From: Hemileia vastatrix
Taxonomy: Eukaryota > Basidiomycota > Pucciniomycetes > Pucciniales > Zaghouaniaceae
Reading direction: 5' to 3'
NCBI GenBank assembly: GCA_030280995.1
Contig: JASXTE010000009.1
Span: 33,705,501-33,769,500, forward strand
Length of the DNA stretch: 64,000 nucleotides
The position numbers were made by a program, and so were the translations under genes. Positions 31,553-61,298 of this stretch are shown piece after piece (position 1 is the stretch's first letter; each line of letters begins with the position of its first letter). The notes under the pieces are model-generated. The model ran no database searches. It saw only the letters and a program-made list of their open reading frames with translations, and was not told the DNA's origin.

Positions 31553-32325
31553 TGTCACGCGCCACGTGACACTCGAGGCGAAATTAACTCAATAAATCAA
31601 TAATATCGAGTCCTACATCTATACTCGAAGCGCAGAAAGCAATTCTCCATAGCAACTGCGATTTTTCCTTTGTGTACTTACTATTTAACTGCGCTAGCCT
31701 AAACTCTAAATATAAATTAGTCAATCTCCCAATAGGGTACCTTAGTCCTTTTCAATAAGCGACGCACAGTGCTAGGATCAACGAAATAGTACAGTAGTAG
31801 TTTTTTCATTAAAGTTTTGTTAATTAATTAAAAAGGGGTATATTGAGCATGGACGGATATTTAGTGAAGAGGGTCTAAGTGTATGTTAGTAATGGTCAAT
31901 GGAATGGGCATACTGCAATGGAAGGGAGGTCAATGCGAGGAGGAACAAAGGATATAAAAGGAGTTGGGTATTTGGTTCGATATTCCTTAGAATTAAATTA
32001 TAATATCGTATTTACATTAATAGTGGAAAACCTTAAAAGTTAAAACATTGTTATTGTATCTTTCTTTTACCTTCTCAATATTCATTTCTAAATCCTAAAT
32101 CTTTGACTATTGAGTTTCCAACCCTTCGTGAGATTTTAAGAATTATTATTACCTTGGAACTAGTTTATAATTCTTCTCAAACAAACCTCGAACCTATAGC
32201 TATTACTTCGAGTGACCTTCGAATAATTTCCTCGAATCATTCCTCTGTGCTTCAAAGAAGTTTCTAAATCCCTCATCTCACTTTCAGGAACATCCTCGAC
32301 CTTGTGCGTAGGTTTTCCGGTGACA
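31553..32325 (+). repeat. Element B 5' LTR
   Basis: The near-palindromic start TGTCACGCGCCACGTGACA includes a CACGTG E-box. TATAAAAG is at 31953. The transcript should start about 30-37 bp on, at or just before GAATTAAATTATA (31990-32002), which is complementary to the bases just after the LTR. Confidence 0.94.
31953..31960 (+). promoter_or_regulatory. TATA box of element B LTR
   Basis: TATAAAAG inside AGGATATAAAAGGAGTTGGG, kept in all four LTRs of this family in the window. Confidence 0.6.
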
Positions 32326-32326
32326 G

Positions 32327-32339: not shown

Positions 32340-32396
32340 TCCGTAGTTCTCATTCTTTGAACTACTACGTCTTTTTAGGTGCTTCTAAAATTTTAA

Positions 32397-33584
32397 ATGG
32401 CACCTGTTCAACGCACTCCTCCTACGGGCGCTACTACTAGAGCTCGCGCTAGAGGCAGGCCAACAGCCACAAGGTCTGTTTCTCGCACTCACTCTTTGGA
32501 ACCACTCGACCTTAGGGAACGGCAACATTCAGTTCAATCTGTAGAAGACATTCCACAAGATTTTGAGGATTCTAGTGATGAAGAAGAAGGAGAGGATACA
32601 ATGCATGAGGCACCATCCGCCCCTGCCAATCACCCTTCTGGCCAATCCTCAGAACCGGGACCATCTAACTCTCTGGAAGATTTCATGAGACTTTTTATGA
32701 AAACCCTTTCAAATCCAACGTCTTCAGAGGGATCTAAGTTCAAAACTCCTTCTATGAAATCTCCTGACAAATTCGACGGAGATCACCCCGACAGATTGCG
32801 ACCCTTCTTGCAAACCTGCAAGCTACTGTTCCATAATGATACTCGAACCTTTAACAGCGACCGATCAAAGGTTGTTTACACTTCTTCATTCCTAGCCGGG
32901 AAAGCAGCAAGATGGTTCGAACCTTATCTACTCATGCTTTCTTCGACAGAAACCCACTTACTTATCAATAATTGGGAAAAGTTCGAAGACCAACTTTTTA
33001 CGTTGTTTGGGGATCCTAATGAAACGGACAACGCAGAAATTGAACTTGATTTTCTTTGCATGAGTGATAATGGTAAAGCCTCTGAATATATCTCGAACTT
33101 CAGAGCACTTCAAACTCAAGTAGGTTGGAATGATGCTGCCCTTAAGTATCATTTCAAGAAAGGACTTCCTTCGAGGATTCTGGATCAATTAAATCTTCAC
33201 GGTCAGAAGATGACTACTTTAACGGATTTAATGGATCGAACCCTCGAACTTGACGGCGTTTATCAAGGACGACTTCAGCATCGTCGATATGCCAACAAAT
33301 CTCAAGGCCTAAATTTTAAATCGGGACCTTCTTCACACCCACGACCAAATCAATCCTCCTCGACTCAATCCAAACCCAATAAGGGAAAGGATAAAACTCG
33401 ACCAAAAGGCTCAACCCCAGGCGATATCAGCAAAGTACTGGATCCTAAAGGGGAACTTAAAGAAGCTGAGAGGAAGAGAAGAGCAGATAATGGGTTATGT
33501 ATGTATTGTGGGGGTAAGCACAAGTTGGAAGACTGTGTAAAGTTGAAGGAAAGAGAAGGTACTAGTTCGAAGTCAAAAAACTAG
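32397..33584 (+). CDS. Element B Gag
   Basis: 395 aa structural protein that packages element RNA in cytoplasmic particles. The first 100 residues are disordered and acidic (SSDEEEGED). A Retrotrans_gag capsid region follows (about residues 120-270: KFDGDHPDRLRPFLQTC, AGKAARWFEPYL). Near the C-terminus is a zinc-knuckle variant CMYCGGKHKLEDC with His one residue closer than usual. The frame is intact. It ends TCA-AAA-AAC-TAG, placing a slippery heptamer against the stop codon, and pol follows in the -1 frame. Confidence 0.92.
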   Translation: MAPVQRTPPTGATTRARARGRPTATRSVSRTHSLEPLDLRERQHSVQSVEDIPQDFEDSSDEEEGEDTMHEAPSAPANHPSGQSSEPGPSNSLEDFMRLFMKTLSNPTSSEGSKFKTPSMKSPDKFDGDHPDRLRPFLQTCKLLFHNDTRTFNSDRSKVVYTSSFLAGKAARWFEPYLLMLSSTETHLLINNWEKFEDQLFTLFGDPNETDNAEIELDFLCMSDNGKASEYISNFRALQTQVGWNDAALKYHFKKGLPSRILDQLNLHGQKMTTLTDLMDRTLELDGVYQGRLQHRRYANKSQGLNFKSGPSSHPRPNQSSSTQSKPNKGKDKTRPKGSTPGDISKVLDPKGELKEAERKRRADNGLCMYCGGKHKLEDCVKLKEREGTSSKSKN

Positions 33585-33618
33585 TAGATAGTTTACTTGT
33601 GTGCAAAGCAAACTATCT
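33575..33618 (+). promoter_or_regulatory. -1 ribosomal frameshift signal, Gag to Pol
   Basis: The slippery heptamer A-AAA-AAC (33575-33581) is in the right register, directly before the gag stop. Four bases later AGATAGTTT (33586-33594) can pair with AAACTATCT (33610-33618), a 9 bp stem with a further short inner stem. A shift here opens the frame LVDSLLVCKANYL, which runs into protease. Element C keeps the same signal (54510-54516 on the minus strand). Confidence 0.8.
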
Positions 33619-36600
33619 TATCTCTCCCAGTGCACAGAACCTCCATGTCTTAAGGACTGGAGTTGCCTTAAACCGCTTGAGATTCATTCTTTTTAAGGAG
33701 GATATCCCCTTCAGTTGTCTTATAGACTCTGGAGCTTCAATTTCTTTTGTTAGTTTATCTTTTGCCGAGAAGCTTCAACTAACATTTACAGATATCGATC
33801 GAACTCCCATCTATTTGGTCAAATCAGAGGAACCCAAATATTGGGTAAGTAAGAAAGTTTTAAGGGTTTTCAACTTTCTGAATTTTCCCCCCTTCGAGTG
33901 GGAATTATCAGTCTTGGACGCCCCAAGGATGGACGATACCATTCTTGGCCATGACTTTTTAACGTATTGGAATCCCAAAATTGATTGGACCCGGGGATTG
34001 ATCACCCCACGCTCTAAGTATATTTCTGATTCTTTAATGCAGGTCAATAGGGAGTTAAACAACCCGCCTGACAACGTCCTGCTAGAGGACAAATCTCTGC
34101 CAGATGACTTGCAAGCATCTGTACCTTCTTTAAATGAGCAATTGGCTAACCCTTCTAGCTCGATGACTTCACTCGAAGAGGATTTAAATTGCCTCGAAGT
34201 AATCGAATTATGCTCTCTCAATACAGGTATCACCTCGACAGATTCTCTCGAAGATGAAGAGGATGACCAAATCAACGTTGAAGCCATTAAATCAACTCTA
34301 CGGGAAATCTACCACAATTTCCTCGATGTTTTCTCAATCCGCAAGGCCGATAAGTTACCACCTCATTGACCCTACGACCATCAAATAGAGTTAATAGGCC
34401 CAGTACCTCCGGCAGGTCCTGTCTATTCTCTATCGAAGGACGAATCTCAAGTTCTTCGAGACTACATTGCAGAGAATGTAGCCAAAGGTTTCATCAGAGC
34501 CAGTAAATCTCCAACCGGCTCCCCAGTCCTCTTTGTAAAAAAGAAGGACGGTAGTCTTAGGTTGTGTGTTGACTATAGAAAGCTCAACACAGTTACAAAG
34601 AAGAATGCATATCCTGTTCCTCCTATGTCATTACTTCTTAACCTTTTCAATGGTGCTAATTTCTTTTCTAAAATTGATCTTAGAGGCGCTTACAATCTTA
34701 TTCGCATTGTGGAAGGTCATGAACCACTGACTGCAATGCGCACTAGATTTGGTAGTTTTGAATATTTAGTTATGCCTTTTGGATTATGTAACGCACCTTC
34801 AACTTTTCAAACTTTTGTTAATGATATCTTTCAAGATGTTGTTGAACAATTTGTAGTCGTCTATTTAGATGATATTTTAATATTCTCGAAAACACTGGAT
34901 GAACATATTCATCATGTTCGACAGGTCCTAAATCGTCTTCGAGATCATGGTCTCTACGCCAAGCATAATAAATGCGAATTCCACCTCAAATCAATTGATT
35001 TTTTGGGGTTTACGTTGTCCACTGACGGTTTAGTCATGGATGACAAAAAAGTCCAGAAAATCCTGGAATGGCCTGAGCCCAAAAACATTAAATCACTCCA
35101 AGGATTTTTGGGTTTTGCAAACTTCTATAGAAGATTTATTAAAGATTACTCTAAAACTATTTCCAATCTTACTTCTCTTCTTAGAAAAGATATTCCTTTT
35201 GTTTTTATTTCTACAGCCCGAAAGGAATTCGAAGCACTAAAAACGGCGTTCACCACAGCCCCAATTCTTCGGCATTTTGATCCTTCGGCCTCGACAATAG
35301 TTGAGACAGATGCGAGCGATTATGCTATTGCAGGGGTCATCTCCCAATTAAATCCTGAAACAAATTTGTTTCATCCTGTTGCTTTTGAGTCACGCAAACT
35401 CATAGCCGCGGAATTAAATTATGAAATTCATGACAAAGAGCTTTTAGCTATTATCCATTGTCTTAAAAAATGGCGTTCTTTTTTTCTCAGCCTAGATAGT
35501 CCTTTTCAAATTTTAACTGATCACAATGCTTTGAAATACTTCATGTCTTCTAAAGTGTTAACCAGGCGTCAAGCCAGGTGGGCTGAATTTTTGTCTGAAT
35601 TTTCTTTCTCTATTTCCTATCGCCCAGGAAAAAACTGCATTGTCCCAGATATCTTGTCACGTCGGGACGACGTTTACCCACAGCGGGGGGACGCATTTGC
35701 TGACAAGAACCCAGCAAATGTGCAATCAATCTTCAACGAATCAATGTTAACAACTCATCAACTTAATTCGATGACAATTCAATCTTTTCGAAATCCACTA
35801 TCCAACATCCTTGAAGCTCAGTCGAAGGACAATTATTGTTTAGGGTTAAAAGACAAAATACTCTCGAAGCAAGGGGCCAAAAGATTTAGTATTGAATCAG
35901 GTCTATTAGTCTTCGAAGGTAGAGTAGTCATACCCGACAACAACGAGATAAAATTATGGATTTTCAATAGTCGACATGATTCTCCGTTAGCTGGTCATTT
36001 TGGGGTTGATAAAACCTACCAGTTAATAGCGAGGGATTTCTTCTGGCCAGGTATGACCAAGGAAATCAAGGCCTATATAAAAGCTTGTTACGAATGTAAT
36101 AGGAATAAGGCTCCCCGTCACCGGAAGCATGGGTTGCTTCAACCACTTCCTATTCCCTCTAAACCTTGGGAATCTTTATCGATGGATTTCATTTCTCAAC
36201 TTCCTATTTCTAATGATTTTGATGCTATATTAGTAATAGTAGATAGATTTTCAAAAATGTCTATTTTTGTTAAAACCACTACTACTGCTACAGCAGAAGA
36301 TTTGTCAAAATTGTTTCTAGAATATGTATTTTCTAAACACGGCTTACCAAATGACATTATTTCAGATAGAGGCTCATTGTTTGTATCCACATTCTGGACC
36401 CAACTGTGTCGACAACTCAATATCACGAGGAATCTCTCCACGGCCTATCACCCTGAAACCGATGGTTAAACAGAAAGAGTTAACCAAATCCTCGAACAAT
36501 ATCTTCGAATGTATGTCAGTTACCAACAAGACGATTGGACCACATGGTTACCATTGGCCGAATTTGCTTATAATAACTCGACTCATTCTTCGACACGACA

Positions 36601-37231: not shown

Positions 37232-38160
37232 AATTTCTTTATTTAAAATTTTCTTTTATTTTTCTTTCTTTCTTTAAAATCTAAAACACCTCTTAAATTT
37301 CTTAGCCTTGTTTTCTTCTTTCTCTCTTCTTTTCTTTCTATAAAATTTCCTCCAAAACCAACTAAAATTAAAATCAAAATTAAAATTAAATACAATAAAA
37401 TAAAATCAAAATTAAAATTAAATAAAATAAAATAAATAGAATAAAACATAAATAATAAAATAAAAATAAATCTCTCTAAATATTTTCTTTCTTTTCTTTT
37501 CAATTCTTTAAATACATTCTTTTCTTAAATTTAAAATTCTCTTTAAAAATTTCTCTTCCAAAAAATTTATTCTCTCTTTAAAAAAAAAAAAACTTTCTTT
37601 CCTTCGAATCATCAAATCTTGTACAACACGACATTTTCCTCAAACTTAACTTCAACCTCTAAATCTCCCTATAATAATTCTTTGAAACAAATAATTCTTC
37701 TTTTCAAATTCTCTTAAATTCTAAATTCTGTTTTTTTTCTTTTCTTTCTTCTTCCTCTCTTTCAACTAAAATTTCTTTTTTAAAAAAAAAAAAAAAAAGA
37801 AAAAAAATAATAATATATATATATTTTTCTTTCATTAAATCCTCAATTTAACAAACTCATCTCAATCACAAAACCGTTTCTTTTTCTCTCTCTTTTCTTA
37901 CATAAAATTTTCCTTTTAAAAACACTAAAACTTCCTTCAATTAAAACAACCTTTTTTCTTTCTTTAAAATTCTTCTTTCAAATTCTAAAATTTTTTATTT
38001 AAAACTTCTTTTTTCTTTTTTTTCTCTCTCTCTAAAATCTTATAAAATTAACAACATTCACCTACAATAAAAAAAAATAATCATAATAAAATAAAATAAA
38101 AATAAAATAAAACTAAAATACAATTCTACTTTTCTACTTCTTTACATCTCTCTTTTTATT
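37232..38160. other. Pyrimidine-rich spacer of element B
   Basis: About 0.9 kb of T/C- and A/T-rich low complexity between the pol stop and the end of the antisense gene. Element C has the equivalent at 49930-50879, with similar blocks but many length changes. No coding potential seen. It may hold the 3' ends of both converging transcripts. Confidence 0.7.
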
Positions 38161-39112
38161 TCAAATTTTTTCTTTTAATTTTTCTCGAACCAATCTTTTC
38201 ATTTTCTCCAAAACTACCCTTATCTCCTTCCTGCATTTATCAAATACCTCCTCCTCTCCTACCGGAACCACCTCTCCAATCTCCAAGAGCTCCTCCGCCA
38301 CGTCGAAGGAAGCAGCGTCAATAATAGCGTCGACCTCCCCACATAGTTCTTCCGCGAACCTTACTCGTCGACCTTGACAAGGTTTCTTCGACAACACCTG
38401 GTCCAGGGTGTCATCGGGCTCTTCAACCACTTCCGTGGCCGGAGGGTTTGCCTCAGTTGGTATAACCGGCGCAGGTTCCGCAATCGGCTCTTCCAGGTTA
38501 TTCGATGTCTAAAACGCGACTCATCAGTAACTTCATCGTTGAAATAAAACAATTAAAACTTACCTCGAAGATGGGATCAGGCTCCAGAAATAACCTGGGC
38601 ATCACTCCGACTTCTACCTCTCTCTCTTCCTCATCGTCCTCGATGACCACCCGACGTTTCTTGGGTGCACGCCCTGGAACAGGGACTTCATCTTCATCCT
38701 CCTCCACCAATTCATCGACCTCTTCCTCGACACCTCGCTTCCAACTCGTGGCCTGGGTTACCCAGGTTGAGATCTCGTTGTTCATCTCCTTATCATTTTC
38801 CCCCACCAATTGTTCATCTTCGATCGAGACATCCCAAATGTCTTCGACCACCTCTTTAGTCTTTGGAACTACCCAAAATTTTGTTTTTGTGAATCGATTT
38901 TCGATTTCCGCGTTCTTTGTCAACGCATCACACGCCACTCGCCGCCAACGGCAAAACTCGCATTTCTGGCGAGGGCCTTGAGTCGCCGTACTTTCGACAC
39001 AGAAATATTCCATGCTTTCACAAGCCGTGCAAGTCCGTGAAAACTGTCGTGTGATTATTCCCCCATCCGCTTTAGGGTGTGGAGGCGTGGGTGTGGGGGT
39101 AGGGCAGTTCAT
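38161..39112 (-). CDS. Antisense Zn2Cys6-type protein carried by element B
   Basis: Two exons on the strand opposite to pol (39112-38564 and 38508-38161; intron GTAAGT...TTTTAG, 55 bp) give 298 aa. Cys 28, 31, 38, 51, 54 and 61 form C-x2-C-x6-C-x12-C-x2-C-x6-C, the pattern of fungal binuclear zinc cluster DNA-binding domains, with basic residues in the second half (CRWRRVAC). An acidic stretch follows, then PKKRRV (about 150-155), a likely nuclear signal. Exon 2 has RVRF (about 231-234), like a PP1-docking motif, and a charged helical tail. The ATG is 109 bp inside the 3' LTR. The frame is intact; the copy in element C has a premature stop. Not recognised as a standard retrotransposon protein; probably nuclear and possibly regulatory. 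Confidence 0.72.
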
Positions 39113-39220
39113 TATAAAATAAATAATTGAGAGATGCGGGAAAAAAGTATTAGACAAGTGAAATTAGTGTGGGAAGATGGTTCAAGCTCAACGGAGTTCG
39201 CGTTCTTATACCCGGGTATC

Positions 39221-39993
39221 TGTCACGCGCCACGTGACACTCGAGGCGAAATTAACTCAATAAATCAATAATATCGAGTCCTACATCTATACTCGAAGCG
39301 CAGAAAGCAATTATCCATAGCAACTGCGATTTTTCCTTTGTGTACTTACTATTTAACTGCGCTAGACTAAACTCTAAATCTAAATTAGTCAATCTCCCAA
39401 TAGGGTACCTTAGTCCTTTTCAATAAGCGACGCACAGCGCTAGGATCAATGAAATAGTACAGTAGTAGTTTTTTCATTAAAGTTTTGTTAATTAATTAAA
39501 AAGGGGTATATTGAGCATGGATGGATATTTAGTGAAGAGGGTCTAAGTGTATGTTAGTAATGGTCAATGGAATGGGCATACTGTGATGGAAGGGAGGTCA
39601 ATGCGAGGAGGAACAAAGGATATAAAAGGAGTTGGGTATTTGGTTCAATATTCCTTAGAATTAAATTATAATATCGTATTTACATTAATAGTGGAAAACC
39701 TTAAAAGTTAAAACATTGTTATTGTATCTTTCTTTTACCTTCTCAATATTCATTTCTAAATCCTAAATCTTTGACTATTGAGTTTCCAACCCTTCGTGAG
39801 ATTTTAAGAATTATTATTACCTTGGAACTAGTTTATAATTCTTCTCGAACAAACCTCGAACCTATAGCTATTACTTCGAGTGACCTTCGAATAATTTCCT
39901 CGAATCATTCCTCTGTGCTTCGAAGAAGTTTCTAAATCCCTCATCTCACTTTCAGGAACATCCTCGACCTTGTGCATAGGTTGTCCGGTGACA
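39221..39993 (+). repeat. Element B 3' LTR
   Basis: 773 bp, nearly identical to the 5' LTR and followed by the TTTGC duplication. Its left end faces the start of the antisense gene, so it may also supply promoter sites to that gene. Confidence 0.94.
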
Positions 39994-48079: not shown

Positions 48080-48852
48080 TGTCACCGGACGACCTACGCA
48101 CAAGGTCGAGGATGTTCCTGTAAGTGAGATGAGGGATTTTAGAAACTTCTTCGAAGCACAGAGGAATGATTCGAGGAAATGATTCGAAGGTCACTTGAAG
48201 TAATAGCTATAGGTTCGAGGTTCGTTCAAGAAGAATTATAGACTAGTTCCAAGGTAATAATAATTCTTAAAATCTCACGAAGGGTTGGAAACTCAATAAT
48301 CAAAGATTTAGGATTTAGAAATGAATATTGAGGAGTTAAAAGAAAGATACAATAACAATGATTTAACTTTTAAGGAGTTACCACTATTAATGTAAATACG
48401 ATATTATAATTTAATTCTAAGGAATATCAAACCAAATACCCAACTCCTTTTATATCCTTTGTTCCTCCTCGCATTGACCTCCCTTCCATCGCAGCATTCC
48501 CATTCCATTGACCATTACTAACATAAACTTAGACCCTCTCCACTAAATATCCGTCCATGCTCAATTTACCCCTTTTAATTAATTAACAAAACTTTAATAA
48601 AAAAACTACTACTATACTATTTCGTTGATCCTAGCGCTGTGCGTCGCTTATTGAAAAGGACTAAGGTACCCTATTGGGAGATTGACTAATTTAGATTTAG
48701 AGTTTAGGCTGGCGCAGTTAAATAGTAAGTACACAAAGGAAAATCGCAGTTTCTATGGAGAATTGCTTTCTGCGCTTCGAGTATAGATTTAGGACTCGAT
48801 ATTATTGATTCATTGAGTTAATTTCGCCTCGAGTGTCACGTGGCGTGTGACA
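48080..48852 (-). repeat. Element C 3' LTR
   Basis: 773 bp; read on the minus strand it runs TGTCACACGCCACGTGACA to CCGGTGACA. The left border abuts the ACAAC duplication. Confidence 0.92.
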
Positions 48853-48961: not shown

Positions 48962-49929
48962 ATGAACTGCCCTACTCCCACACCCACGCCTCCACACCCT
49001 AAAGCGGATGGGGGAATAATCACACGACAGTTTTCACGGACTTGCACGGCTTGTGAAAGCATGGAATATTTCTGTGTCGAAATTACGGCGACTCGAGGCC
49101 CTCGCCAGAAATGCAAGTTTTGCCGTTGGCGGAAAGTGGCGTGCAATGCGTTGACGAAGAACGCGGAAATCGAAAAACGATTTACAAAAACTAAATTTTG
49201 GGTAGTTCCGAAGACCAAAGAGGTGGTTGAAGACATTTGGGATGTCTCGATCGAAGATGAACAATCGGTGGGGGAAAATGATAAGGAGTTGAACAACGAG
49301 ATCTCAACCTGGGTAACCCAGGCCACAAGTTCGAAGCGAGGTGTCGAGGAAGAGGTCGATGAATTGGTGGAGGAGGATGAAGATGAAGTCCCTGTTCCAG
49401 GGCGGGCACCCAAGAAACGACGGGTGGTCATTGAGGACGATGAGGAAGAGAGAGAGGTAGAGGTCGAAGTGGCGCCCAGGTTATTTCTAGAGCCTGACCC
49501 CATCTTCGAGGTAAGTTTTATTTGTTTGTTTTAAGGATGAAGTTACTGATGAGATTTTTTTTTTTTTTTTTTTTTTTTTAGACATCAAATAACCTTGAAG
49601 AGCCGATTGCGGAGCCTGCGCCGGTTATACCAACTGAGGCAAACCCTCCAGCCACGGAAGTAGTTGAAGAGCCCGAAGACACCCTGGACCAGGTGTGGTC
49701 GAAGAAACCTCGTCAAGGTCAATGAGTAAGGTTCGCGGAAGAACTATGTGGGGAGGTCGACGCTATTATTGACGCTGCTTCCTTCGACATGGCAGAGGAG
49801 CTATTGGAGATGGGAGAGGTGGTTCCGGTAGGAGAGGAGGAGGTATTTGAGAAATGCAGGAAGGAAATAAGGGTAGTTTTGGAGAAAATGAAAAGATTGG
49901 TTCGAGAGAAGTTAAAAGAAAAGATTTGA
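48962..49929 (+). pseudogene. Antisense Zn2Cys6-type gene of element C, premature stop
   Basis: Counterpart of 38161-39112. Exon 1 (48962-49510) encodes 183 residues, as in B, with all six cysteines kept (CTACESMEYFC, then CKFCRWRKVAC). The intron (49511-49581) is at the identical position but grown by a T run of about 25. In exon 2 (from 49582) two neighbouring CGA codons of B have become CAA and TGA, so translation would stop at 49723-49725, after 230 residues. That removes the RVRF motif and the helical tail. The frame stays otherwise open to the homologous TGA at 49927-49929. The first 183 residues are highly conserved between copies. Confidence 0.75.
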
Positions 49930-50879: not shown

Positions 50880-53800
50880 TTAAGGTTTTGGTTTTAAAGG
50901 ATATTTCAAATGAAAAGATTTTAGGAGTTCAGGAGCGTTGGAAACATTGATGGCTGCTTCCCAGGATGTTTTGTCTGAGTCATTGAGGAAGCCTTCCCAT
51001 TCCACGAGGTATTGAAGTTTCCCCTTGCGTATTATTGAATCAAGGATACAACTTACTTCCCACTCTAGATGATCTTCTACTTCGACTGGTTCCGGAGGGG
51101 GTTGGTTCTTGCCCGGGTATATTTCTTGAGCCAGTTCCAGGAGAGATACATGGAAAACAGGGTGAATTGCCTGCCATTTAGGAGGTAACTTGAGTCAAAA
51201 TGCAGTTTTAGAGACTTCAGAATCGATTTCGAATGGTCCCAAGTGCTTTTCAGCCAGTTTCTTTGATGGTCATGTTGTTCGAATGTTTTGTGCATCGAGC
51301 CATACTTTGTCGCCTGGTTTAAAGGAAGGAGCAGATTGTCGATGTTTGTCGGCCTGTTCCTTGTATCTTCGAATCGCTGATTCCAAATTTGTTTTAAGTT
51401 CTTCTTGGAGTCGTGATATAGTTCGAAGATAATGTTCCGCAGGATGATTAGTTCCTACATGAATTGAGTTGAATCGAGGATGTCGTCCATAAATGGTTTC
51501 GAAGGGAGATTGTCGTGTTGAAGAATGAGTCGAGTTATTATAAGCAAATTCGGCCAATGGTAGCCATGTGGTCCAATCGTCTTGTTGGTAGCTGACATAC
51601 ATTCGAAGATATTGTTCAAGGATTTGGTTAACTCTTTCTGTTTGACCATTGGTTTCAGGGTGATAGGCCGTGGAGAGATTCCTCGTGATATTGAGTTGTC
51701 GACACAGTTGGGTCCAGAATGTGGATACAAACAATGAGCCTCTATCTGAAATAATATCATTTGGTAAGCCGTGTTTAGAAAATACATATTCTAGAAACAA
51801 TTTTGACAAATCTTCTGCTGTAGCAGTAGTAGTGGTTTTAATAAAAATAGACATTTTTGAGAATCTATCTACTATTACTAATATAGCATCAAAATCATTA
51901 GAAATAGGAAGTTGAGAAATTAAATCCATCGATAAAGATTCCCAAGGGTTAGAGGGAATAGGAAGTGGTTGAAGCAACCCATGCTTTCGGTGACGGGGAG
52001 CCTTATTCCTATTACATTTGTAACAAGCTTTTATATAGGCCTTGATTTCCTTGGTCATACCTGGCCAGAAGAAATCCCTTGCTATTAACTGGTAGGTTTT
52101 ATCAACCCCAAAATGACCAGCTAACGGAGAATCATGTCGACTGTTGAAAATCCATAATTTTATCTCATTGTTGTTGGGTATGACTACTCTACCTTCGAAG
52201 ACTAATAGACCTGATTCAATACTAAATCTTTTGGCCCCTTGCTTCGAGAGTATTTTGTCTTTTAACCCTAAACAATAATCGTCCTTCGACTGAGCTTCGA
52301 GGATGTTGGATAGTGGATTTCGAAAAGATTGAATTGTCATCAAATTAAGTTGATGAGTCGTTAACATTGATTCGTTGAAGATTGATTGCACATTTGCTGG
52401 GTTCTTGTCAGCAAATGCGTCCCCCCGCTGTGGGTAAACGTTGTTCCGACGTGACAAGATATCTGGGACAATGCAGTTTTTTCCTGGGCGATAGGAAATA
52501 GAGAAAGGAAATTCAGACAAAAATTCAGCCCACCTGGCTTGACGCCTGGTTAACACTTTAGAAGACATGAAGTATTTCAAAGCATTATGATCTGTTAAAA
52601 TTTGAAAAGGACTATCTAGGCTGAGAAGAAAAGAACGCCATTTTTTAAGACAATGGATAATAGCTAAAAGCTCTTTGTCATGAATTTCATAATTTAATTC
52701 CGCGGCTATGAGTTTGCGTGACTCAAAAGCAACAGGATGAAACAAATTTGTTTCAGGATTTAATTGGGAGATGACCCCTGTAATAGCATAATCGCTCGCA
52801 TCTGTCTCAACTATTGTCGAGGCAGAAGGATCAAAATGCCGAAGAATTGGGGCTGTGGTGAACGCCGTTTTTAGTGCTTTGAATTCCTTTCGTGCTGTAG
52901 AAGTAAAAACAAAAGGAATATCTTTTCTAAGAAGAGAAGTAAGATTGGAAATAGTTTTAGAGTAATCTTTAATAAATCTTCTATAGAAGTTTGCAAAACC
53001 CAAAAATCCTTGGAGTGATTTAATGTTTTTGGGCTCAGGCCATTCCAGGATTTTCTGGATTTTTTTATCATCCATGACTAAACCGTCAGTGGACAACGTA
53101 AAAACCAAAAAATCAATTGATTTGAGGTGGAATTTGCATTTATTATGCTTGGCGTAGAGACCATGATCTCGAAGACGATTTAGGACCTGTTGAACATGAT
53201 GAATATGTTCATCCAGTGTTTTTGAGAATATTAAAATATCATCTAAATAGACGACTACAAATTGTTCAACAACATCCTGAAAGATATCATTAACAAAAGT
53301 TTGAAAAGTTGAAGGTGCGTTACATAATCCAAAAGGCATAACTAAATATTCAAAACTAGCAAATCTAGTGCGCATTGCAGTCAGTGGTTCATGACCTTCC
53401 GCAATGCGAATAAGATTGTAAGCGCCTCTAAGATCAATTTTAGAAAAGAAATTAGCACCATTGAAAAGGGTAAGAAGTAATGACATAGGAGGAACAGGAT
53501 ATGCATTCTTCTTCGTGACTGTGTTGAGCTTTCTATAGTCAACACACAACCTAAGACTACCGTCCTTCTTTTTTACAAAGAGGACAGGAGAGCCGGTTGG
53601 AGATTTACTGGCTCTGATGAAACCTTTGGCTACATTCTCTGCAATGTAGTCTCGAAGAACTTGAGATTCGTCCTTCGATAAAGAATAGACAGGACCTGCC
53701 GGAGGTACTGGGCCTATTAACTCTATTTGATGGTCGTAGGGTCGATGAGGTGGTAACTCATCGGCCTTGCGGATTGAAAAAACATCAAGGAAATCATGAT

Positions 53801-54506
53801 AGATTTCTGGTAGAGTTGATTTGGTCATCCTCTTCATCTTCGAGAGAATCTGTCAAGGGGATACCTGTATTGAGAGAGCATAATTCGATTACTTCGAGGC
53901 AATTTAAATCCTCTTCAAGTGAATTCATCGAGCTAGAAGGGTTAGCCAATTACTCATTTAAAGAAGGTACAGATGCTTGCAAGTCATCTGGCAGAGACTT
54001 GTCCTCTAGCAGGAAGTTGTCAGGCGGGTTGTTTAACTCCCTATTGACCTGCATTGAAGAATCAGAAATATACTAAGAGCGTGGGGTGATCAATCCCCTT
54101 CCCCAATCAATTTTGGGATTCCAATGCGTTAAAAAGTCATGGCCAAGAATGGTATTGTCCATCCTTGGGGCCTCCAAGACTGATAATTCCCACTCGAAGG
54201 GGGGAAAGTTCGGAAAGTTGAAAACCCATAAAACTTTCTTACTTACCCAATATTTGGGTTCCTCTGATTTGACCAAATAGATGGGAGTTCGATCGATATC
54301 TGTAAATGTTAGTTGAAGCTTCTCGGCAAAAGATAAACTATCAAAAGAAATTGAAGCTCCAGAGTCTATAAGACAACTGAAGGGGATATCCTCCTTAAAA
54401 AGAATGAATCTCAAGCGGTTTAAGGCAACTCCAGTCCTTAAGACATGGAGGTTCTGTGCACTGGGAGAGATAAGATAGTTTGCTTTGCACACAAGTAAAC
54501 TATCTA
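50880..54506 (-). pseudogene. Element C Pol, several lesions
   Basis: Same domain order as element B Pol, on the minus strand. The stretch from LPEIYHDFLDVFSIRKADEL to integrase (53837-51270) is open for 855 codons and includes RT VVVYLDDILIFSK, RNase H IVETDASDYAITG and integrase SMDLISQLP. Lesions are TAG at 54073-54075 after the protease, and a 20 bp deletion between AAATCAAC repeats near 53830 that shifts the frame. TGA follows at 51270-51272 and again at 51195-51197 (CGA in B). At the three sites where B has stops, C still has sense codons, so the two copies decayed independently. Confidence 0.9.
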
Positions 54507-55692
54507 CTAGTTTTTTGACTTCGAACTATTACCTTCTCTTTCCTTCAACTTTACACAGTCTTCCAACTTGTGCTTAACCCCACAATACATACATAACCCA
54601 TTATCTGCTCGTCTCTTCCTCTCAGCTTCTTTAAGTTCCCCTTTAGGATCCAGTACTTTGCTGATATCGCCTGGGGTCGAGCCTTTTGGTCGAGGTTTAT
54701 CCTTTCCCTTATTGGGTTTGGATTGAGTCGAGGAGGATTGATTTGGTCGTGGGTGTGAAGAAGGTCCCAATTTTAAATTTAGGCCTTGAGATTTGTTGGC
54801 ATATCAACGATGTTGAAGTCGTCCTTGATAAATGCCATCAATTTCAAGGGTTCGATCCATTAAGTCCGTTAAAGTAGTCATCTTCTGACCGTGAAGATTT
54901 AATTGATCTAGAATCCTCGAAGGAAGTCCTTTCTTGAAATGATACTTAAGGGCAGCATCATTCCAACCTACTCGAGTTTGAAGTGCTCTGAAGTTCGAGA
55001 TATATTCAGAAGCTTTACCATTATCACTCATGCGAAGAAAATCAAGTTCAATTTCCGCGTTGTCCGTTTCATTAGGGTCCCCAAAAAACGTAAAAAGTTG
55101 GTCCTCGAATTTTTCCCAATTATTGATAAGTAAGTGGGTTTCTGTCGAAGAAAGCATGAGTAGATAAGGTTCGAACCATCTTGCTGCTTTTCCGGCTAGG
55201 AATGAAGAAGCGTAAACAACCTTTGATCGGTTGCTGTTAAAGGTTCGAGGGTCATTATGGAACAGTAGCTTGCAGGTTTGCAAGAAGGGTTGCAATCTGT
55301 CGGGGTGATCTCCGTCGAATTTGTCAGGAGATTTCATAGAAGGAGTTTTGAACTTAGATCCCTCTGAAGACGTTGGATTTGAAAGGGTTTTCATAAAAAG
55401 TCTCATGAAATCTTCCAGAGAGTTAGATGGTCCCAGTTCTGAGGATTGGCCAGAAGGGTGATTGGCAGGGGCGGATGGTGCCTCATGCGTTGTATCCTCT
55501 CCTTCTTCTTCATCACTAGAATCCTCAAAATCTTGTGGAATGTCTTCTACAGATTGAACTGAATGTTGCCGTTCCCTAAGGTCGAGTGGTTCCAAAGAGT
55601 GAGCGAGAAACAGACCTTGTGGCTGTTGGCCTGCCTCTAGCTTGAGCTCTAGTAGTAGCGCCCGTAGGAGGAGTGCGTTGAACAGGTGCCAT
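54507..55692 (-). pseudogene. Element C Gag, broken
   Basis: Same as element B Gag but with a 2 bp deletion near 55600 (CGCTCACTC for CGCACTCACTC) that shifts the frame after the start region, and TGA at 54804-54806 (CGA in B) before the zinc knuckle. The C-terminal heptamer AAAAAAC before TAG (54516-54510) is kept. Confidence 0.9.
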
Positions 55693-55763
55693 TTAAAATT
55701 TTAGAAACACCTAAAAGGACGTAGTAGTGCAAAGAATGAGAACTACGGAGATTTAAATTATAC

Positions 55764-56521
55764 TGTCACCGGACGACCTACGCACAAGGTTGAGGATGTT
55801 CCTGTAAGTGAGATGAGGGATTTTAGAAACTTCTTCAAAGCACAGAGGAATGATTCGAAGGTCACTCGAAGTAATAGCTATAGGTTCGAGGTTCGTTCGA
55901 GAAGAATTATAGACTAGTTCCAAGGTAATAATAATTCTTAAAATCTCACGAAGGGTTGGAAACTCAATAATCAAAGATTTAGGATTTAGAAATGAATATT
56001 GAGGAGGTAAAAGAAAGATACAATAACAATGATTTAACTTTTAAGGAGTTACCACTATTAATGTAAATACGATATTATAATTTAATTCTAAGGAATATCA
56101 AACAAATACCCAACTCCTTTTATATCCTTTGTTCCTCCTCGCATTGACCTCCCTTCCATCGCAGCATTCCCATTCCATTGACCATTACTAACATACACTT
56201 AGACCCTCTCCACTAAATATCCGTCCATGCTCAATTTACCCCTTTTAATTAATTAACAAAACTTTAATAAAAAAACTACTACTATACTATTTTGTTGATC
56301 CTAGCGCTGTGCGTCGCTTATTGAAAAGGACTAAGGTACCCTATTGGGAGATTGACTAATTTAGATTTAGAGTTTAGGCTGGTGCAGTTAAATAGTAAGT
56401 ACACAAAGGAAAATCCAGTTGCTATGGAGAATTGCTTTCTGCGCTTCGAGTATAGATTTAGGACTCGATATTATTGATTCATTGAGTTAATTTTGCCTCG
56501 AGTGTCACGTGGCGCGTGAAA
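55764..56521 (-). repeat. Element C 5' LTR
   Basis: 758 bp, about 15 bp shorter than the 3' LTR. The start-of-RNA block GAATTAAATTATA and the TATAAAAG box are present. The adjoining PBS (just below 55764) has one mismatch to it. Confidence 0.9.
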
Positions 56522-57089
56522 ACAACCTCTTGGGTACCATAAGAGAACCCCCGAGAAAAGGGTCACATACCACGGTCCACACAGCAATAATGTCGGACAT
56601 CCAGGCCCTTGCTGCAGCCATTGCCCCTCTAGTTTCCCAACGTACCTTCCATCAAACCCCCCCTCCCCCTCCCAAACCCAAACCCCAGCCTTGCCTAACC
56701 TCCATAGAAGCAAAACTCAACGACATCCTTGCTAAGCTCTCCCCTAAAAGCAATCCCCCTAGTCATCACAAACCCTCCTCAGCCCAAAATTCACACCCCA
56801 CCTTTGCTCAAGCAGTCACCTCTGGTCTCACCCATGAGGCCTCCCCACCCCCTTCCCATCCTCGCCCTGCCTTCCCCTCATTCACTATCAAACAAACTGA
56901 CCCAACCTCACCAGTACTAAAAGATTATCCTAACTCAAAACTTCTCGCCTTCATTAACAACCACATCTCCTCAAAGAAAATCCTAAACCCCACTACCCAA
57001 ACCCAGATACGTGTTAAAGGTGTGATCAGGCACAAGTCCAATGACCTAAAAATCATCTCCTCCTCAGACGATGTGGTAGCCTAAAGTTT

Positions 57090-58258
57090 AGTATGGCACC
57101 TAAGTACGTAAATGGAGTTATTACGGCATCCAAGATTGGCATTATTATTTTTATATAAGGGTTTTATTTAATTTATTGGAGTTTAAAATATGAAGAAATT
57201 GGTCACGAGCGAATGCCTATACAAAAACAATTTATTTTACAGAGAAAGCTTATTTTTACGGTCTGAAAAATTTATAAGTATCAAGTCGAGTCACTCAAGA
57301 ACCTTGGGAAATTTTCCCAGAATTTTTACTATTTTTCTTATATTTTTAAATGAATTTTAAAGTTTTATAGAAATATTTACGTTTTCAGAAATTACTTAAC
57401 TTCGATGAATTTTCACGGGGTAATTAGAGCTGCGCAGACTACGAAAATTAGTTTGGTATGTAAAGGGGAAGTTGCTCTATTATGTGTAATTTTTCTAGAT
57501 TTTTTATTATAGTTTTAAGGTTCTAATTGAGTCCGGAAGTCCGGACGGACTCCGTTTCGACTCCGTACGGACTCTGCTTTGACTCCGTACGGACTCCGCT
57601 TCGACTCCGTACGGACTCCATTTGGACTCCGCTTCGGCTCCGTACGGACTCCGTACGGGCTCCGGATTGACTCTGGAAGAGCTCTGGAGGGGAAAACTTA
57701 GGCACGTGACTAGGAATACTTAAGCGCTTCTCAAACTCGAAATTGAGGGGAGGACACATCATACAGCTTAATCTTTAACCACCACGGTCTCATTTTTTAT
57801 TACTCAACAAATTAAATAAATTGTAATACCCTTATAACTTTATATTTTTTTATATTTAACATTTTAGAAATACTATTCAACAATTTAAAACACACTTCAT
57901 ACAGGGTATCTTTAGAAAGGTCTTCGTCGCTGGGACTTGATTATTGCTGTCTCATAAAAATTCAAATTATTATAAAAACATAAAAGTCAATCTTTTCAGA
58001 TCTTTCACTGGTACACCTTAATTGTTGTTATCAGTATTTCTTTTCTCAACAGCCACTTTTATTTAAATCTCAATAAGTGTTAATTATTTTAGAGTTTCAT
58101 TATTTTATAAATCAGATCCAAGTAGATTGGTTAGCTTAGTGATTTAGAATTCCCATTTTGATATTTTTGTTGGAAGGACGGGGTTTTCAGCTAAATCCAC
58201 ATATCTCCTCTGGATTCTGCTTACAGCAAGGCAACTGTAAGAGTTTACCTTACCATAG
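57090..58258 (+). repeat. Element D 5' LTR (borders approximate)
   Basis: Lies between the point where the LINE-like frame stops and the tRNA-Lys primer site. The probable ends are imperfect inverted repeats (TAGTATGG at the left, CCATAGT at the right). The second LTR is outside the window, so the borders cannot be verified. U3 contains a CpG-rich array (57530-57670). Confidence 0.6.
57530..57670. promoter_or_regulatory. CCGTACGG palindrome array in element D LTR
   Basis: The palindrome CCGTACGG occurs at 57563, 57585, 57607, 57640 and 57651, plus a variant CCGGACGG at 57541. All spacings are multiples of 11 (22, 22, 22, 33, 11), within GACTCCGTACGGACTCCG units. A set of helically phased binding sites in U3 is a fair reading. 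Confidence 0.55.
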
Positions 58259-58433: not shown

Positions 58434-61043
58434 ATGTCTTCTTCTGCTGTTGCTTCTGGATCTTCTAACCCTCTTACTCCCTCAGTTAGAATTGTTTCTT
58501 GGGATGGCCCAAAGTTTGATGGGGAGGAGGTTAAATGGTTCATTAGCAGGTATGAAGCTGCTGCTGCTGTTGATGGTGCTTCTCATGTGGATATGGTGAA
58601 GCAAGTTAGGTTTTTTATTGCTGATAGGGAAGTGGAAAAAGAGGTTATTGCTATGCAGGCATTTAAGGACAAGGATTGGGTTAAGCTTTCTAAAGCTATG
58701 GTTGATAGATGGGGTGTTAGGTTTACTATGATGGACCTCAATAAAATTGTTGGAGACTGGCAAGCAAAAGGTGGAGTTTCTTCTATGGCTGACTTCAAAA
58801 AGCTCTGTGTTCAGCTTGATGAAGTGGTGGAATATCTCATACTGGTGGACGAGTTAGTGCATGAGAACCAAGCAAAAGATTTGTTTTGGACAGCATGCAG
58901 CAGGGATATTCGAATGGACGTCTTAAAGGATCTTTCAAGAAAAGATTTGATGAAGGAACTGCCTAATGGTGAGCAAAAACTGCCGGCTCTGGAGGTTATC
59001 AAGGACAACATTCAAGCCCATCTAAATTTATTGGCGTTGGACAAATATCAAGAGTCATGCACTCAATATGTTAGCAAGGTTAGCCAAGTTTTGGCCGAAA
59101 ACAACAATATTATGGTCAAAGCCCAGGAGGCCAAGAAGGCTCAAATGGGATTACCTGCTGCTAAAGTTGAGGGTAATGTAGATAATAAGATGGTCGATCA
59201 CCTGGCCGATTTAACGAAACAATTAAAAATATTTGTTCAAGAAACCCAGAAGGCCAATAAGGCCCCAATCGCTTCTTCGTCGACGTCAACTTCTTATCAG
59301 TCTAGAGGGTATGAACGTCGAAATTATAATGGCAATAATAATGGTAACCGCTTCCCAGGCAATGGGAGAAATGGTGGGAATGGTGGTAATGGATATAGAG
59401 GTGGCTATGATGAGCCAAAGGTGTGCTCCTATTGTAATAGGAGGGGGCACAGAGCAACAGTTTGTTTTGCTCTTGATAAGGATATGGATGCTGGGCGAGT
59501 TTTATTCGATGGTAAAGTTTATAAATTTCCTGATGGTTCGTTCATCAAGCCCAGTGATGGACAGTCTCCTTCTGATTTGGTCAGAAGAAGTTTAACGGCT
59601 GAAAGGAGAGCCAGATTTGAAGAGGTGACGGATGAAGATGTTAATGCCAAGAGTGGGAAAAATGGTAATGGTAATGGTGGTAAAGCTGAAAAGGGCAAGG
59701 AGAAAGAGGTCAGTAAAGCCACATTTTCTACTTCTTTTGGTGGTTTAGAGCTGGTGACGGTTGCCCAGGTGGAGGGTAGCTGTATGGCTGGCGAATACGA
59801 TGTTAATGCTGCTAGAAGAGCAGCTGCTACTAAGGCGAAGAGTAGCATTCAGAGCCAATTGAGGGCTAATCCTGGCAAGGCCAATAACAAAGTGAACCCT
59901 TACTCTAAGGACAAGAATTCTAGTGCTCAAACTGCCGTCAACAAATTGAACCCTTACTCTAAGGACGAATTATATAAAATGCAGAAGGGGATTGCTGATA
60001 TGGGGCCCCCTAGTTATGGCAAGTTTGATTTAAATGGTGAGCCTATGCCAGAGGATGATTCGGATTCTGAGGAGGACGTACCGTTGGCGTCTCTACCCAG
60101 ACCAAGTTTTAGCAGTCCCATCCCAATGGAGGGTGTAAGAAGGACTAGCGATGGATCAGGATTAGTGCAAGAAGCTGGTGACGGAGTTAGGGTTATAGAA
60201 AGTGAAGATGTTATTATGGGAGGTGAAGATGGCTTGGTTGGACCTCAAGAGGTACCCAGGGCCAAGGTTGTTAAATCAAAGGTCCAGTATGAGCGGCCGG
60301 TAGTTTCTGGTCAAGCTAATGCGATGGACGCAGTTTTGAATAGGGTGAATCAACTTCAGATTCCCTTATCTTTGGGGGAGTTATTTACGATTAGTCCGGC
60401 GCTTGCTGAAAAGCAAAAGAAGAATTTGACGAGGCGTCGGGTTTCCACTGGAGAGGTGGAATATATTTGTGAAAATGCTGAAAAGTTTGGGGAAGATGTA
60501 GATACACATTTTTCCGCTCCCCTGGGTTACCTGGTGGTAACTCTTAATGGTAAAGAAGTAAAGGCCTTGGTCGATTCAGGGTCTCAAATTAATTTAATTT
60601 CATTGGAGCAAGCAACGAGTATAGGCTTGCCAATTAAAAGTGGAACTGGGGGAAACCTCAGAGGCATTGGAGGGCATGCAACAGAGCTGATGGGTACAGC
60701 TGAGCATGTCAGGTTAGGCATTGGTGGATCTGTTGGTAAGGTTCACTTTTATGTGGCCAGAGGAGCAGTCAAAACTGTTCTTGGTGGTCCTTTTTTGATG
60801 GATTTTGAGGCCAGGATAGGGTATCAAGCTGGCATGGGGATTAGTTTGGAGATCACTGGTGAAGATATGCGGAGGTTACATATGCGGTTAGCGCCTCCTG
60901 GAGATGAAGGTTGGGAAACACAGCCAGGGATTACTACTCTGTGCCAGTGTTGTGTTTGCACCAAGAAGCGGCATATAAAACGGACAGCTTCTGGTGAATT
61001 ATGTTTGTTGGAAAGGGATGAATGCCCTCATTTTTTGGGGTAG
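58434..61043 (+). CDS. Element D Gag-protease
   Basis: 869 codons, intact. The N-terminal capsid-like region (VRIVSWDGPKFDGEEVKWFISRYE; about 200 residues, helical) resembles gag of basidiomycete gypsy elements. A Gly/Asn-rich linker leads to a classical zinc knuckle CSYCNRRGHRATVC (C-x2-C-x4-H-x4-C) at about residues 327-340. After a long Lys/Asp-rich linker comes the aspartic protease (YLVVTLNGKEVKALVDSGSQIN, D-S-G) at about 700-800. It ends TTT-TTG-GGG-TAG with pol overlapping in the -1 frame, so protease is made with Gag and RT/IN only after a shift. Element E is a relative. Confidence 0.9.
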   Translation: MSSSAVASGSSNPLTPSVRIVSWDGPKFDGEEVKWFISRYEAAAAVDGASHVDMVKQVRFFIADREVEKEVIAMQAFKDKDWVKLSKAMVDRWGVRFTMMDLNKIVGDWQAKGGVSSMADFKKLCVQLDEVVEYLILVDELVHENQAKDLFWTACSRDIRMDVLKDLSRKDLMKELPNGEQKLPALEVIKDNIQAHLNLLALDKYQESCTQYVSKVSQVLAENNNIMVKAQEAKKAQMGLPAAKVEGNVDNKMVDHLADLTKQLKIFVQETQKANKAPIASSSTSTSYQSRGYERRNYNGNNNGNRFPGNGRNGGNGGNGYRGGYDEPKVCSYCNRRGHRATVCFALDKDMDAGRVLFDGKVYKFPDGSFIKPSDGQSPSDLVRRSLTAERRARFEEVTDEDVNAKSGKNGNGNGGKAEKGKEKEVSKATFSTSFGGLELVTVAQVEGSCMAGEYDVNAARRAAATKAKSSIQSQLRANPGKANNKVNPYSKDKNSSAQTAVNKLNPYSKDELYKMQKGIADMGPPSYGKFDLNGEPMPEDDSDSEEDVPLASLPRPSFSSPIPMEGVRRTSDGSGLVQEAGDGVRVIESEDVIMGGEDGLVGPQEVPRAKVVKSKVQYERPVVSGQANAMDAVLNRVNQLQIPLSLGELFTISPALAEKQKKNLTRRRVSTGEVEYICENAEKFGEDVDTHFSAPLGYLVVTLNGKEVKALVDSGSQINLISLEQATSIGLPIKSGTGGNLRGIGGHATELMGTAEHVRLGIGGSVGKVHFYVARGAVKTVLGGPFLMDFEARIGYQAGMGISLEITGEDMRRLHMRLAPPGDEGWETQPGITTLCQCCVCTKKRHIKRTASGELCLLERDECPHFLG
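61031..61043 (+). promoter_or_regulatory. -1 frameshift site, Gag-PR to Pol of element D
   Basis: The heptamer T-TTT-TTG (61031-61037) is in the slippery register, three bases before the gag stop. Slipping -1 gives FFGVVGADHSN, which is the pol frame. No strong downstream stem was found by eye; AGTG/CACT could form only a short one. Confidence 0.65.
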
Positions 61044-61298
61044 TGGGGGCTGATCACTCTAATGTTGTAATCTCTCCTCAGGATGAGATCCCGGATTGCA
61101 ATAGGTCAGCTCACTTGGAGATAATTCAAGTGGATTCTCAATTATTTTCTGTTAATATTACTTTGGAGTGCAAATATGTTATGGACTTTTCTATATGTTT
61201 ATTGGATTTACCCGGTTTTTCTATTAAATTTAAAAACGGTGAAAAAGGCAAAATGGGCCAAATTAGGTTGGATAAAAATTGGAAGGGTATGTTTTGTG

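What the first reader, a model, noticed from the sequence alone, without database searches (positions are those of the whole stretch)
38161..39112. Ty3/gypsy family B/C carries an intron-containing antisense gene for a Zn2Cys6-type protein
Both copies (38161-39112 in B, 48962-49929 in C) have, on the strand opposite to pol and next to the 3' LTR, a two-exon gene. Its product has Cys 28/31/38/51/54/61 in C-x2-C-x6-C-x12-C-x2-C-x6-C order, an acidic region, PKKRRV and RVRF. Cysteine spacing, exon 1 length (183 codons) and intron position are identical in the two copies. That fits selection before they separated. An antisense intron is not removed from the genomic RNA, so it survives retrotransposition, which explains how an intron persists in a retroelement. 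The product could regulate the element LTR or host genes, in analogy to antisense regulators of some retroviruses (inference). I know of no described Zn2Cys6 factor encoded antisense in a gypsy element.
Basis: partly seen in the sequence, partly recalled or inferred. Interest (0 to 1): 0.88.

Follow-up and report, generated by a model that had tools for sequence, protein, structure and literature searches.

The report
Antisense zinc-cluster gene in rust retrotransposons
Jumping genes of a rust-like fungus carry, on their opposite strand, a small intron-containing gene for a protein with a zinc-cluster-like cysteine pattern that selection has kept, and similar genes sit in the matching spot of other, only distantly related jumping genes of the same genome.

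Summary
B and C are Ty3/gypsy elements with target-site duplications, each with an antisense two-exon gene beside the 3' LTR and the claimed cysteine spacing.

The host is probably a rust fungus. Its 747.6-Mb genome holds at least 150 full-length exon-1 matches. In the 22 copies read, 22 keep GTAAGT...TTTAG and six cysteines; 12 encode the full 298 aa. Shared variants show codon-level constraint in both exons, comparable to a reverse transcriptase fragment.

Beyond the finding: three other nearby elements (D, E1, E3) have an antisense Cys6 motif between pol and the 3' LTR. D's gene is also two-exon, has at least 150 close copies, and passes Pfam's Zn_clus cut-off; B/C's does not. Where halves match, order looks swapped: possibly a permuted zinc cluster.

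Likely role (inferred): a nuclear DNA-binding accessory protein. [quoted passage not shown] my paper searches listed no zinc-cluster version.

The parts
31553..32325 (+). 5' LTR of element B
   Evidence: 98.3% to 3' LTR, TSD TTTGC
32397..33584 (+). gag ORF of B
   Evidence: Pfam Retrotrans_gag E 4.8e-9
34370..36469 (+). pol ORF of B (RT, RNase H, integrase); the same frame goes on to 37231 incl. a chromodomain-like end, with stops at 36467 and 36752
   Evidence: the chromodomain was read by eye, not searched in B
37234..38160 (.). AT-rich spacer between pol and antisense gene; 23 gap events between B and C
38564..39112 (-). antisense gene of B, exon 1 (183 codons)
38930..39031 (-). codons of the six cysteines C28-C61
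38509..38563 (-). intron of the antisense gene of B (55 nt, GTAAGT...TTTTAG), predicted
38161..38508 (-). antisense gene of B, exon 2 (115 codons and stop)
39205..39219 (-). TATAAG and palindrome ATACCCGGGTAT between the 3' LTR and the antisense ATG; candidate antisense core promoter (inference)
   Evidence: TATAA in 21 of 22 copies (read off the printed leaders), CCCGGG in 18 of 22
39221..39993 (+). 3' LTR of B
48080..48852 (-). 3' LTR of element C (element on minus strand)
48962..49510 (+). antisense gene of C, exon 1 (183 codons, 94% identical to B)
49511..49581 (+). intron of C (71 nt), predicted
49582..49929 (+). antisense gene of C, exon 2, with premature TGA at 49723-49725
51270..53852 (-). 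pol ORF of C
54804..55700 (-). gag ORF of C
55764..56519 (-). 5' LTR of C (part aligned to B's LTR)
57067..58257 (+). 5' LTR of element D (ends approximate); D runs out of the window and has its own antisense Cys6 gene at contig C579:33774319-33773640 (L009 4819-4140)
61022..63085 (+). pol ORF of element D

Best explanation
B and C belong to a high-copy Ty3/gypsy family of a rust-like fungus in which the stretch between pol and the 3' LTR holds a genuine antisense accessory gene. Shown by sequence: its two-exon reading frame is under purifying selection across element copies, and Cys6 genes of similar layout lie antisense between pol and the 3' LTR in other, divergent gypsy elements of the genome. 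Inferred: it is transcribed from a core promoter just inside the 3' LTR (TATA-like box next to CCCGGG), spliced by the host, and makes a small protein with an N-terminal binuclear-zinc-cluster-like domain, acidic stretches, a PKKRRV nuclear signal and a charged tail. The protein enters the nucleus and binds DNA, most likely in the element's own LTR or leader, to tune transcription of the sense genomic RNA or of its own antisense RNA. The intron survives because the retrotransposed molecule is the sense RNA, on which the antisense splice signals are not read. The zinc-cluster halves are possibly in swapped order relative to the fungal Zn2Cys6 domain.
For: B against C: 47 differences in 897 coding nt give 19 changed codons at protein level against 32.2 expected (0 of 20,000 shuffles as low); 30 of 47 are at third positions (P 5e-5). 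No gap event in 897 exon nt against 23 in 882 aligned spacer nt. dN/dS 0.19 against 0.29 for the main pol ORF and 0.34 for gag. 150 of 150 scored candidates match exon 1 full length (6862 first-look candidates). 22 copies: intron signals 22/22, six Cys 22/22, full 298-aa product with ATG 12/22. Shared variants: N/S per site 0.30 (exon 1, P 0.0016 against site shares) and 0.15 (exon 2, P 2e-5), against 0.35 in an RT fragment. RT at the expected place in 19 of 20 sampled copies, one of them only partly. D family: 150 of 150 scored matches at 98% or more; in 20 of 21 copies the intron is 83-93 nt with kept signals, and 18 of 21 give the same 202-aa spliced product. D product over the Zn_clus cut-off.
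Against: No transcript, splice read or protein was available to test. B/C cysteines score below the Zn_clus cut-off, and neither half of B matched on its own. No homologue in 5.8 billion proteins, a search limited to shared short words, and none in solved structures by sequence for exon 1. The AlphaFold model is useless (mean pLDDT 33). The pol-sense frame whose third positions lie opposite gives nearly the same N/S. Stronger constraint than RT is not shown (Fisher P 0.44). The D copies show no constraint in exon 2 (singletons 5 syn, 17 non, 2 stop). Element E4 of the D family lacks the antisense gene, so it is not always needed in cis. 8 of 22 B/C-type copies have a premature stop (four of them lose only the last 8 residues), one has a frame change at the end, one lacks the ATG. 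Copies were drawn from the 150 best matches to exon 1, which favours intact exon 1; exon 2 and intron were not used to pick them. All codon-usage scores were negative, the antisense frame only least so.
Confidence: 0.6

Rival explanations
1. Same gene, other job: the protein is a nuclear accessory factor for the replication cycle (nuclear entry of the preintegration complex, target choice, nucleic-acid chaperone), not a transcription regulator, as proposed for antisense proteins of plant elements.
For: NLS-like PKKRRV, acidic region, place and orientation as in Grande/Retand/Boty; no binding site was tested.
Against: The best-conserved part is the cysteine domain: the five exon-1 frames aligned share only one proline and the six cysteines, and the D-type domain reaches Zn_clus, a DNA-binding family (recalled).
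Confidence: 0.22
2. The antisense RNA, not the protein, matters (dsRNA/siRNA control or plain antisense transcription).
For: Antisense transcripts without coding capacity are known in other retroelements; 8 of 22 copies have a premature stop.
Against: Codon-phase constraint in both exons, in one phase only after intron removal; exon lengths kept in D copies while intron length drifts.
Confidence: 0.07
3. The overlapping ORF on the pol-sense strand (38466-38981 in B) is the real gene and the antisense reading is its shadow.
For: Third positions of the two frames coincide; the sense frame is open in exon 1 in 18 of 22 copies and gives similar N/S.
Against: The sense frame in exon 2 is broken in 22 of 22 copies though exon 2 shows the strongest constraint among shared variants; Ser/Thr-rich shadow composition; codon usage fits the antisense frame least badly in both exons.
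Confidence: 0.03
4. A recently captured host gene riding as a passenger, without a role for the element.
For: An intron and a fungal zinc-cluster-like domain could come from a host gene.
Against: Constraint across many insertions; similar genes in divergent elements; no annotated relative found in the protein collection.
Confidence: 0.05

Closest known systems
brtn of Boty-like Ty3/gypsy elements (Botrytis cinerea; Zhao et al. 2011)
   Same: Fungal element with a chromodomain in gag-pol and an additional antisense gene (title as cited; [quoted passage not shown]
   Different: Domain content of BRTN was not seen by me; a zinc cluster and an intron are not mentioned in the passages read.
Antisense ORFs of plant elements: Grande gene23, RIRE2, Retand TRP28
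   Same: Antisense gene between pol and 3' LTR, kept in most copies; gene23 has its own promoter and a nuclear product; DNA binding is predicted for TRP28.
   Different: TRP28/SMC domains, not a zinc cluster; plants; the words zinc and intron do not occur in the main text of the Retand paper.
Fungal Zn(2)-Cys(6) binuclear cluster, Pfam PF00172 (GAL4 type)
   Same: Six cysteines with allowed spacing; basic residues in one half; D-family product over the curated cut-off.
   Different: Where halves match they do so in swapped order; B/C, E1 and E3 products are below the cut-off; the protein is small and element-borne.
Retroviral antisense proteins (HBZ of HTLV-1)
   Same: Nuclear, regulatory, antisense gene of a retroelement (as described in PMC11963269).
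   Different: No sequence relation was tested; other domain type (recalled).

Membership tests
Ty3/gypsy LTR retrotransposon (elements B, C) | LTR pair, TSD, gag, pol with RT-RNase H-integrase order | tested here: met
Antisense additional ORF between pol and 3' LTR (aORF-3R) | antisense to gag-pol, between pol and 3' LTR, present in many copies | tested here: met
   RT at the expected distance in 19 of 20 sampled copies, one only partly
Antisense additional ORF between pol and 3' LTR (aORF-3R) | conserved as protein-coding across copies | tested here: met
Zn2Cys6 (PF00172), B/C product | cysteine spacing C-x2-C-x6-C-x(5-12)-C-x2-C-x(6-8)-C (range recalled) | tested here: met
Zn2Cys6 (PF00172), B/C product | Pfam gathering score 21 bits | tested here: not met
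   9.8 bits; 15.2 for a fragment
Zn2Cys6 (PF00172), D product | Pfam gathering score 21 bits | tested here: met
   24.1 bits, 53-residue fragment 29.4
Zn2Cys6 (PF00172), E1 and E3 products | Pfam gathering score 21 bits | tested here: not met
   12.8 and 10 bits
Zn2Cys6 (PF00172) | basic half first, canonical order of halves | tested here: not met
   second half on profile 1-15 (D), 1-16 (E3), 3-15 (B); first half of E1 on 19-36. Of nine half-queries three matched. PSSM favours swapped order in 5 of 6, only D, E3 and weakly B beyond shuffles; E1 against
Zn2Cys6 (PF00172) | two zinc ions bound by six cysteines; binding to CGG-type sites | not testable with these tools
   structure model failed

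The most novel reading that the evidence does not exclude
Rust-fungus gypsy elements of several deeply different lineages share an ancient, element-specific family of spliced antisense genes that encode a circularly permuted binuclear zinc cluster, a DNA-binding domain type not described before, used by the elements as their own transcription regulators.
Probability: 0.3. Interest if true: 0.86.

Novelty: new variant of a known kind. Interest (0 to 1): 0.72.

Why it matters
Antisense genes in LTR retrotransposons have been known for years without a known function (review read). Here is a case with a recognisable DNA-binding-type domain, a conserved intron whose phase and length behaviour point to the spliced product as the selected one, and hundreds of copies. 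That makes the question of what an antisense gene does for a retroelement directly testable with RNA-seq and genome data. If the swapped zinc cluster is real it also adds a variant to a major fungal family of DNA-binding domains. And if elements of different lineages share it, it shows exchange or deep inheritance of a regulator among retroelements.

Tried and rejected
Sense-strand shadow ORF as the real gene: rejected, because it has stops in exon 2 in 22 of 22 copies. Selection from the two window copies alone: kept only as a first hint. An early gag comparison was frame-shifted (dS 0.158) and was replaced by one on the DNA alignment (dS 0.057). One-base gaps at the end of exon 2 in five copies turned out on checking to be at the last alignment column in four (three of these give the full 298-aa product, the fourth, L049, has an early stop in exon 1); only L039 has a frame change before the end. 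A first alignment of D copies was wrongly oriented and was redone. The D query came out empty through a coordinate slip, so D was not searched as a query there; the E3 query found it. Structure prediction gave nothing usable. Protein searches with the spliced product and with the exon-1 ORF found nothing; viral contigs gave no relative of pol or of the antisense product; no sequence match of exon 1 in solved structures. CGG/CCG triplets in LTR and leader were listed but not tested against chance. A contiguous 274-kb stretch is the only place where elements were surveyed for presence or absence; a wider unbiased survey was not possible.

Full report
What was claimed.

Anatomy. B has LTRs 31553-32325 and 39221-39993 (98.3% identical, TSD TTTGC on both sides) and C has LTRs 48080-48852 and 55764-56519 (TSD GTTGT). 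Gag, RT, RNase H and integrase are found by Pfam; the end of pol reads like a chromodomain (by eye). The antisense gene of B is exon 1 39112-38564, intron 38563-38509 and exon 2 38508-38161, 298 aa. C has the same arrangement with a 71-nt intron and a premature TGA at 49723-49725. B's pol has two in-frame stops before its end; C has two in pol and one in gag. The loose cysteine pattern occurs in the window only in these two genes, and 0 times in 60 Markov controls.

Host. A Grc3-like gene in the window (27006-28925) has its best named matches in Melampsora, Puccinia and Phakopsora at 30-33% identity, so the host is probably a rust fungus or near one.

Is it a gene? Between B and C, the spliced reading frame has 19 changed amino acids or stops where 32.2 are expected if the same substitutions fell at random on the same base classes (0 of 20,000 shuffles as low), and 30 of 47 differences are at third positions. 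There is no gap event in 897 exon nt, against 23 in 882 aligned spacer nt and 2 in 54 aligned intron nt. dN/dS is 0.19, against 0.29 for the main pol ORF and 0.34 for gag. In a codon-usage score trained on other ORFs of the window the antisense frame is the best of six in both exons, but all six are negative, so this is weak.

Many copies. Searching the genome with the exon-1 protein, 150 of the 150 candidates scored (6862 in the first look) match over residues 1-183 at 94-100%; by my count of the table, 26 of 150 have a stop. The count of copies is a lower bound. I read 20 of these 150 plus B and C, 22 in all. 22 of 22 keep GTAAGT and TTTAG and all six cysteines; the intron is 55 nt in 20, 56 and 71 in the other two; 21 of 22 keep ATG. 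The full 298-aa product with ATG is read in 12 of 22; one more has 298 aa but TTG as first codon, one has 304 aa through a frame change, and 8 have a premature stop, of which four lose only the last 8 residues. Variants present in two or more copies have N/S per site of 0.30 in exon 1 (14 syn, 15 non) and 0.15 in exon 2 (14 syn, 5 non, 2 stops); singletons have 0.34 and 0.46. For the same 20 copies I fetched the place where RT is expected: it is there in 19 of 20, one only partly; 18 of the 20 went into the count with B and C. There shared variants give 0.35 (9 syn, 10 non, 1 stop) and singletons 0.66. The antisense gene is thus about as constrained as RT; the difference is not significant (Fisher P 0.44). 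Caution: copies were picked from the best exon-1 matches, which favours intact exon 1; exon 2 was not used for picking.

Which strand? The sense-strand frame whose third positions lie opposite those of the antisense gene gives nearly the same ratios (0.34 and 0.19 for shared variants), so substitutions alone cannot decide. That frame is open in exon 1 in 18 of 22 copies but broken in exon 2 in 22 of 22, and the two exons keep one codon phase only if the 55-nt intron (55 mod 3 = 1) is removed. Both point to the spliced antisense product.

More elements with the same arrangement. I read the 210 kb around the window and looked for LTR pairs, pol and the loose motif in the joined 274 kb. Six motif matches came up: B, C, D, E1, E3, and one zinc-knuckle-like match (33775905 +) that is outside this arrangement. 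Element D (LTRs about C579:33762567-33763757 and 33774438-33775551, pol on plus) has an antisense gene at 33774319-33773640 with exon 1 of 373 nt, an 85-nt intron and a 202-aa product. E1 (LTRs 33691163-33692392 and 33701617-33702848; pol 67% identical to D's in part) has the motif at 33699924 on minus, antisense to pol and 1.7 kb from the 3' LTR. E3 (LTRs 33621241-33622330 and 33631349-33632439; protease and integrase on minus, RT not found) has it on plus from 33623683, between integrase and its 3' LTR. A decayed relative of the B/C gene lies in L019 (residues 20-78, 32% identity, E 2e-5, one stop). Five elements with A-type pol (window A and four more) show no motif; in four of them an LTR follows pol within about 1 kb, the fifth is interrupted and its ends are unclear. 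E4, a close relative of D, lacks exactly the stretch holding the gene (D 33773671-33774386) with about 20 bp shared at the junction. So 5 of these 11 elements have the gene; LTR pairs without detectable pol are not counted. B pol and D pol are only about 28% identical.

D family. The D exon-1 protein has 150 of 150 scored matches at 98% or more, without stops (8752 first-look candidates). In 21 copies (D and 20 of the 150), the intron is 83-93 nt with GTAAGA...TTCTAG in 20, exon 1 is 373 nt in 21 and exon 2 is 236 nt in 19, and 18 give the 202-aa spliced product. Intron lengths in all three phases with constant exons are what splicing predicts. D exon 1 singletons are 14 syn and 10 non; exon 2 singletons are 5 syn, 17 non and 2 stop, so constraint is seen in exon 1, which was used for picking, and not in exon 2 of these young copies.

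What protein? For B/C, Zn_clus scores 9.8 bits (cut-off 21); a 56-residue fragment gives 15.2. The D product scores 24.1 bits, its first 53 residues 29.4; E1 and E3 score 12.8 and 10. The match is odd. The second half of D (residues 31-45) fits profile positions 1-15 and reaches 23.5 bits alone. The second half of E3 fits 1-16, that of B 3-15 within the longer query, and the first half of E1 fits 19-36. Of nine halves given alone, these of D, E3 and E1 matched and six did not, among them both halves of B. A small scoring test with own-genome zinc clusters and recalled textbook ones favours swapped order in 5 of 6 genes (D and E3 clearly, B weakly, C and the L019 relic not beyond shuffles, E1 against), while 7 of 7 controls favour normal order. 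In the alignment of five exon-1 frames only one proline and the six cysteines are invariant. E1-E3 similarity is E 0.002 and E3-D 0.17 in a 274-kb search, so common origin of the D, E1 and E3 genes is likely and of the B/C gene with them only possible.

Promoter. Between the LTR and the ATG, 21 of 22 copies have TATAA (C does not) and 18 of 22 CCCGGG. I see no polypurine tract right beside the 3' LTR, so this conserved stretch could also serve plus-strand priming.

Known context. Antisense ORFs between pol and the 3' LTR are a known kind: Grande, RIRE2, Retand, PvRetro13 and Boty (PMC7264820, parts 1 and 2 of 3 read; PMC11963269, passages and Discussion read). The Boty paper itself I did not see; its title is cited in PMC8365987 (passages) and PMC4227169 (passages), and BRTN is named in one passage of PMC5987419. 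My searches for a zinc-cluster or intron-containing version (listings only) showed none by title or start of abstract.

Verdict. The gene is real and selected (about 0.93 by my judgement); zinc-cluster nature is likely; DNA-binding regulation of the element is the best guess and untested. It is a new variant of a known kind of accessory gene, with a chance that the domain itself is new.

Noticed in passing
genome C84:14590277-14613979 and C34:28893645-28917385: Four B/C-type antisense genes in a row at about 7.72-7.73 kb spacing in each place: looks like tandem arrays of internal region plus one LTR, as from recombination between LTRs.
   Followed up: no
window 31553-39993 against 48080-56519: Synonymous divergence between B and C is about 0.15 in the antisense gene but 0.047 in main pol, 0.057 in gag and 0.075 in the 3' part of pol, which hints at a mosaic origin by template switching or a different mutation rate.
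   Followed up: partly
C579:33686110-33688345 (E4): D-family copy that lacks exactly the antisense gene, with about 20 bp shared at the junction; likely deletion between short direct repeats.
   Followed up: partly
C579:33622300 onward, plus strand (E3): A second cysteine-rich ORF (MGPCQYCIVNNLICTM...) between the first Cys6 gene and the LTR; no Pfam hit for its first 70 residues.
   Followed up: partly
genome contigs C472, C511, C313, C446, C632, C520, C696, C698, C738, C89, C104: Of 13 ordinary Zn_clus hits listed for the assembly only one lies on a contig known to be large (C34); contig lengths of the others were not looked up, one locus has GC 0.53: possible contaminant contigs.
   Followed up: no
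window 39208-39219: Palindrome ATACCCGGGTAT beside the 3' LTR in B; no polypurine tract seen there.
   Followed up: partly
window 27006-28925 +: Grc3/NOL9-like polynucleotide kinase gene, best named matches in rust fungi at 30-33% identity.
   Followed up: yes
window 1932-3071 - and 43499-44257 -: DDE_Tnp_4 transposase ORF, and a weak Myb/SANT-like match below its cut-off.
   Followed up: no
window 626-1400, 12646-13346, 13333-15651: 11-bp and 26-bp tandem repeats and a 761-bp inverted repeat at 96%.
   Followed up: no
L024 6907-7678: LTR of the B/C family, 94% identical, with no B/C pol or antisense hit in that locus; probably a solo LTR.
   Followed up: no
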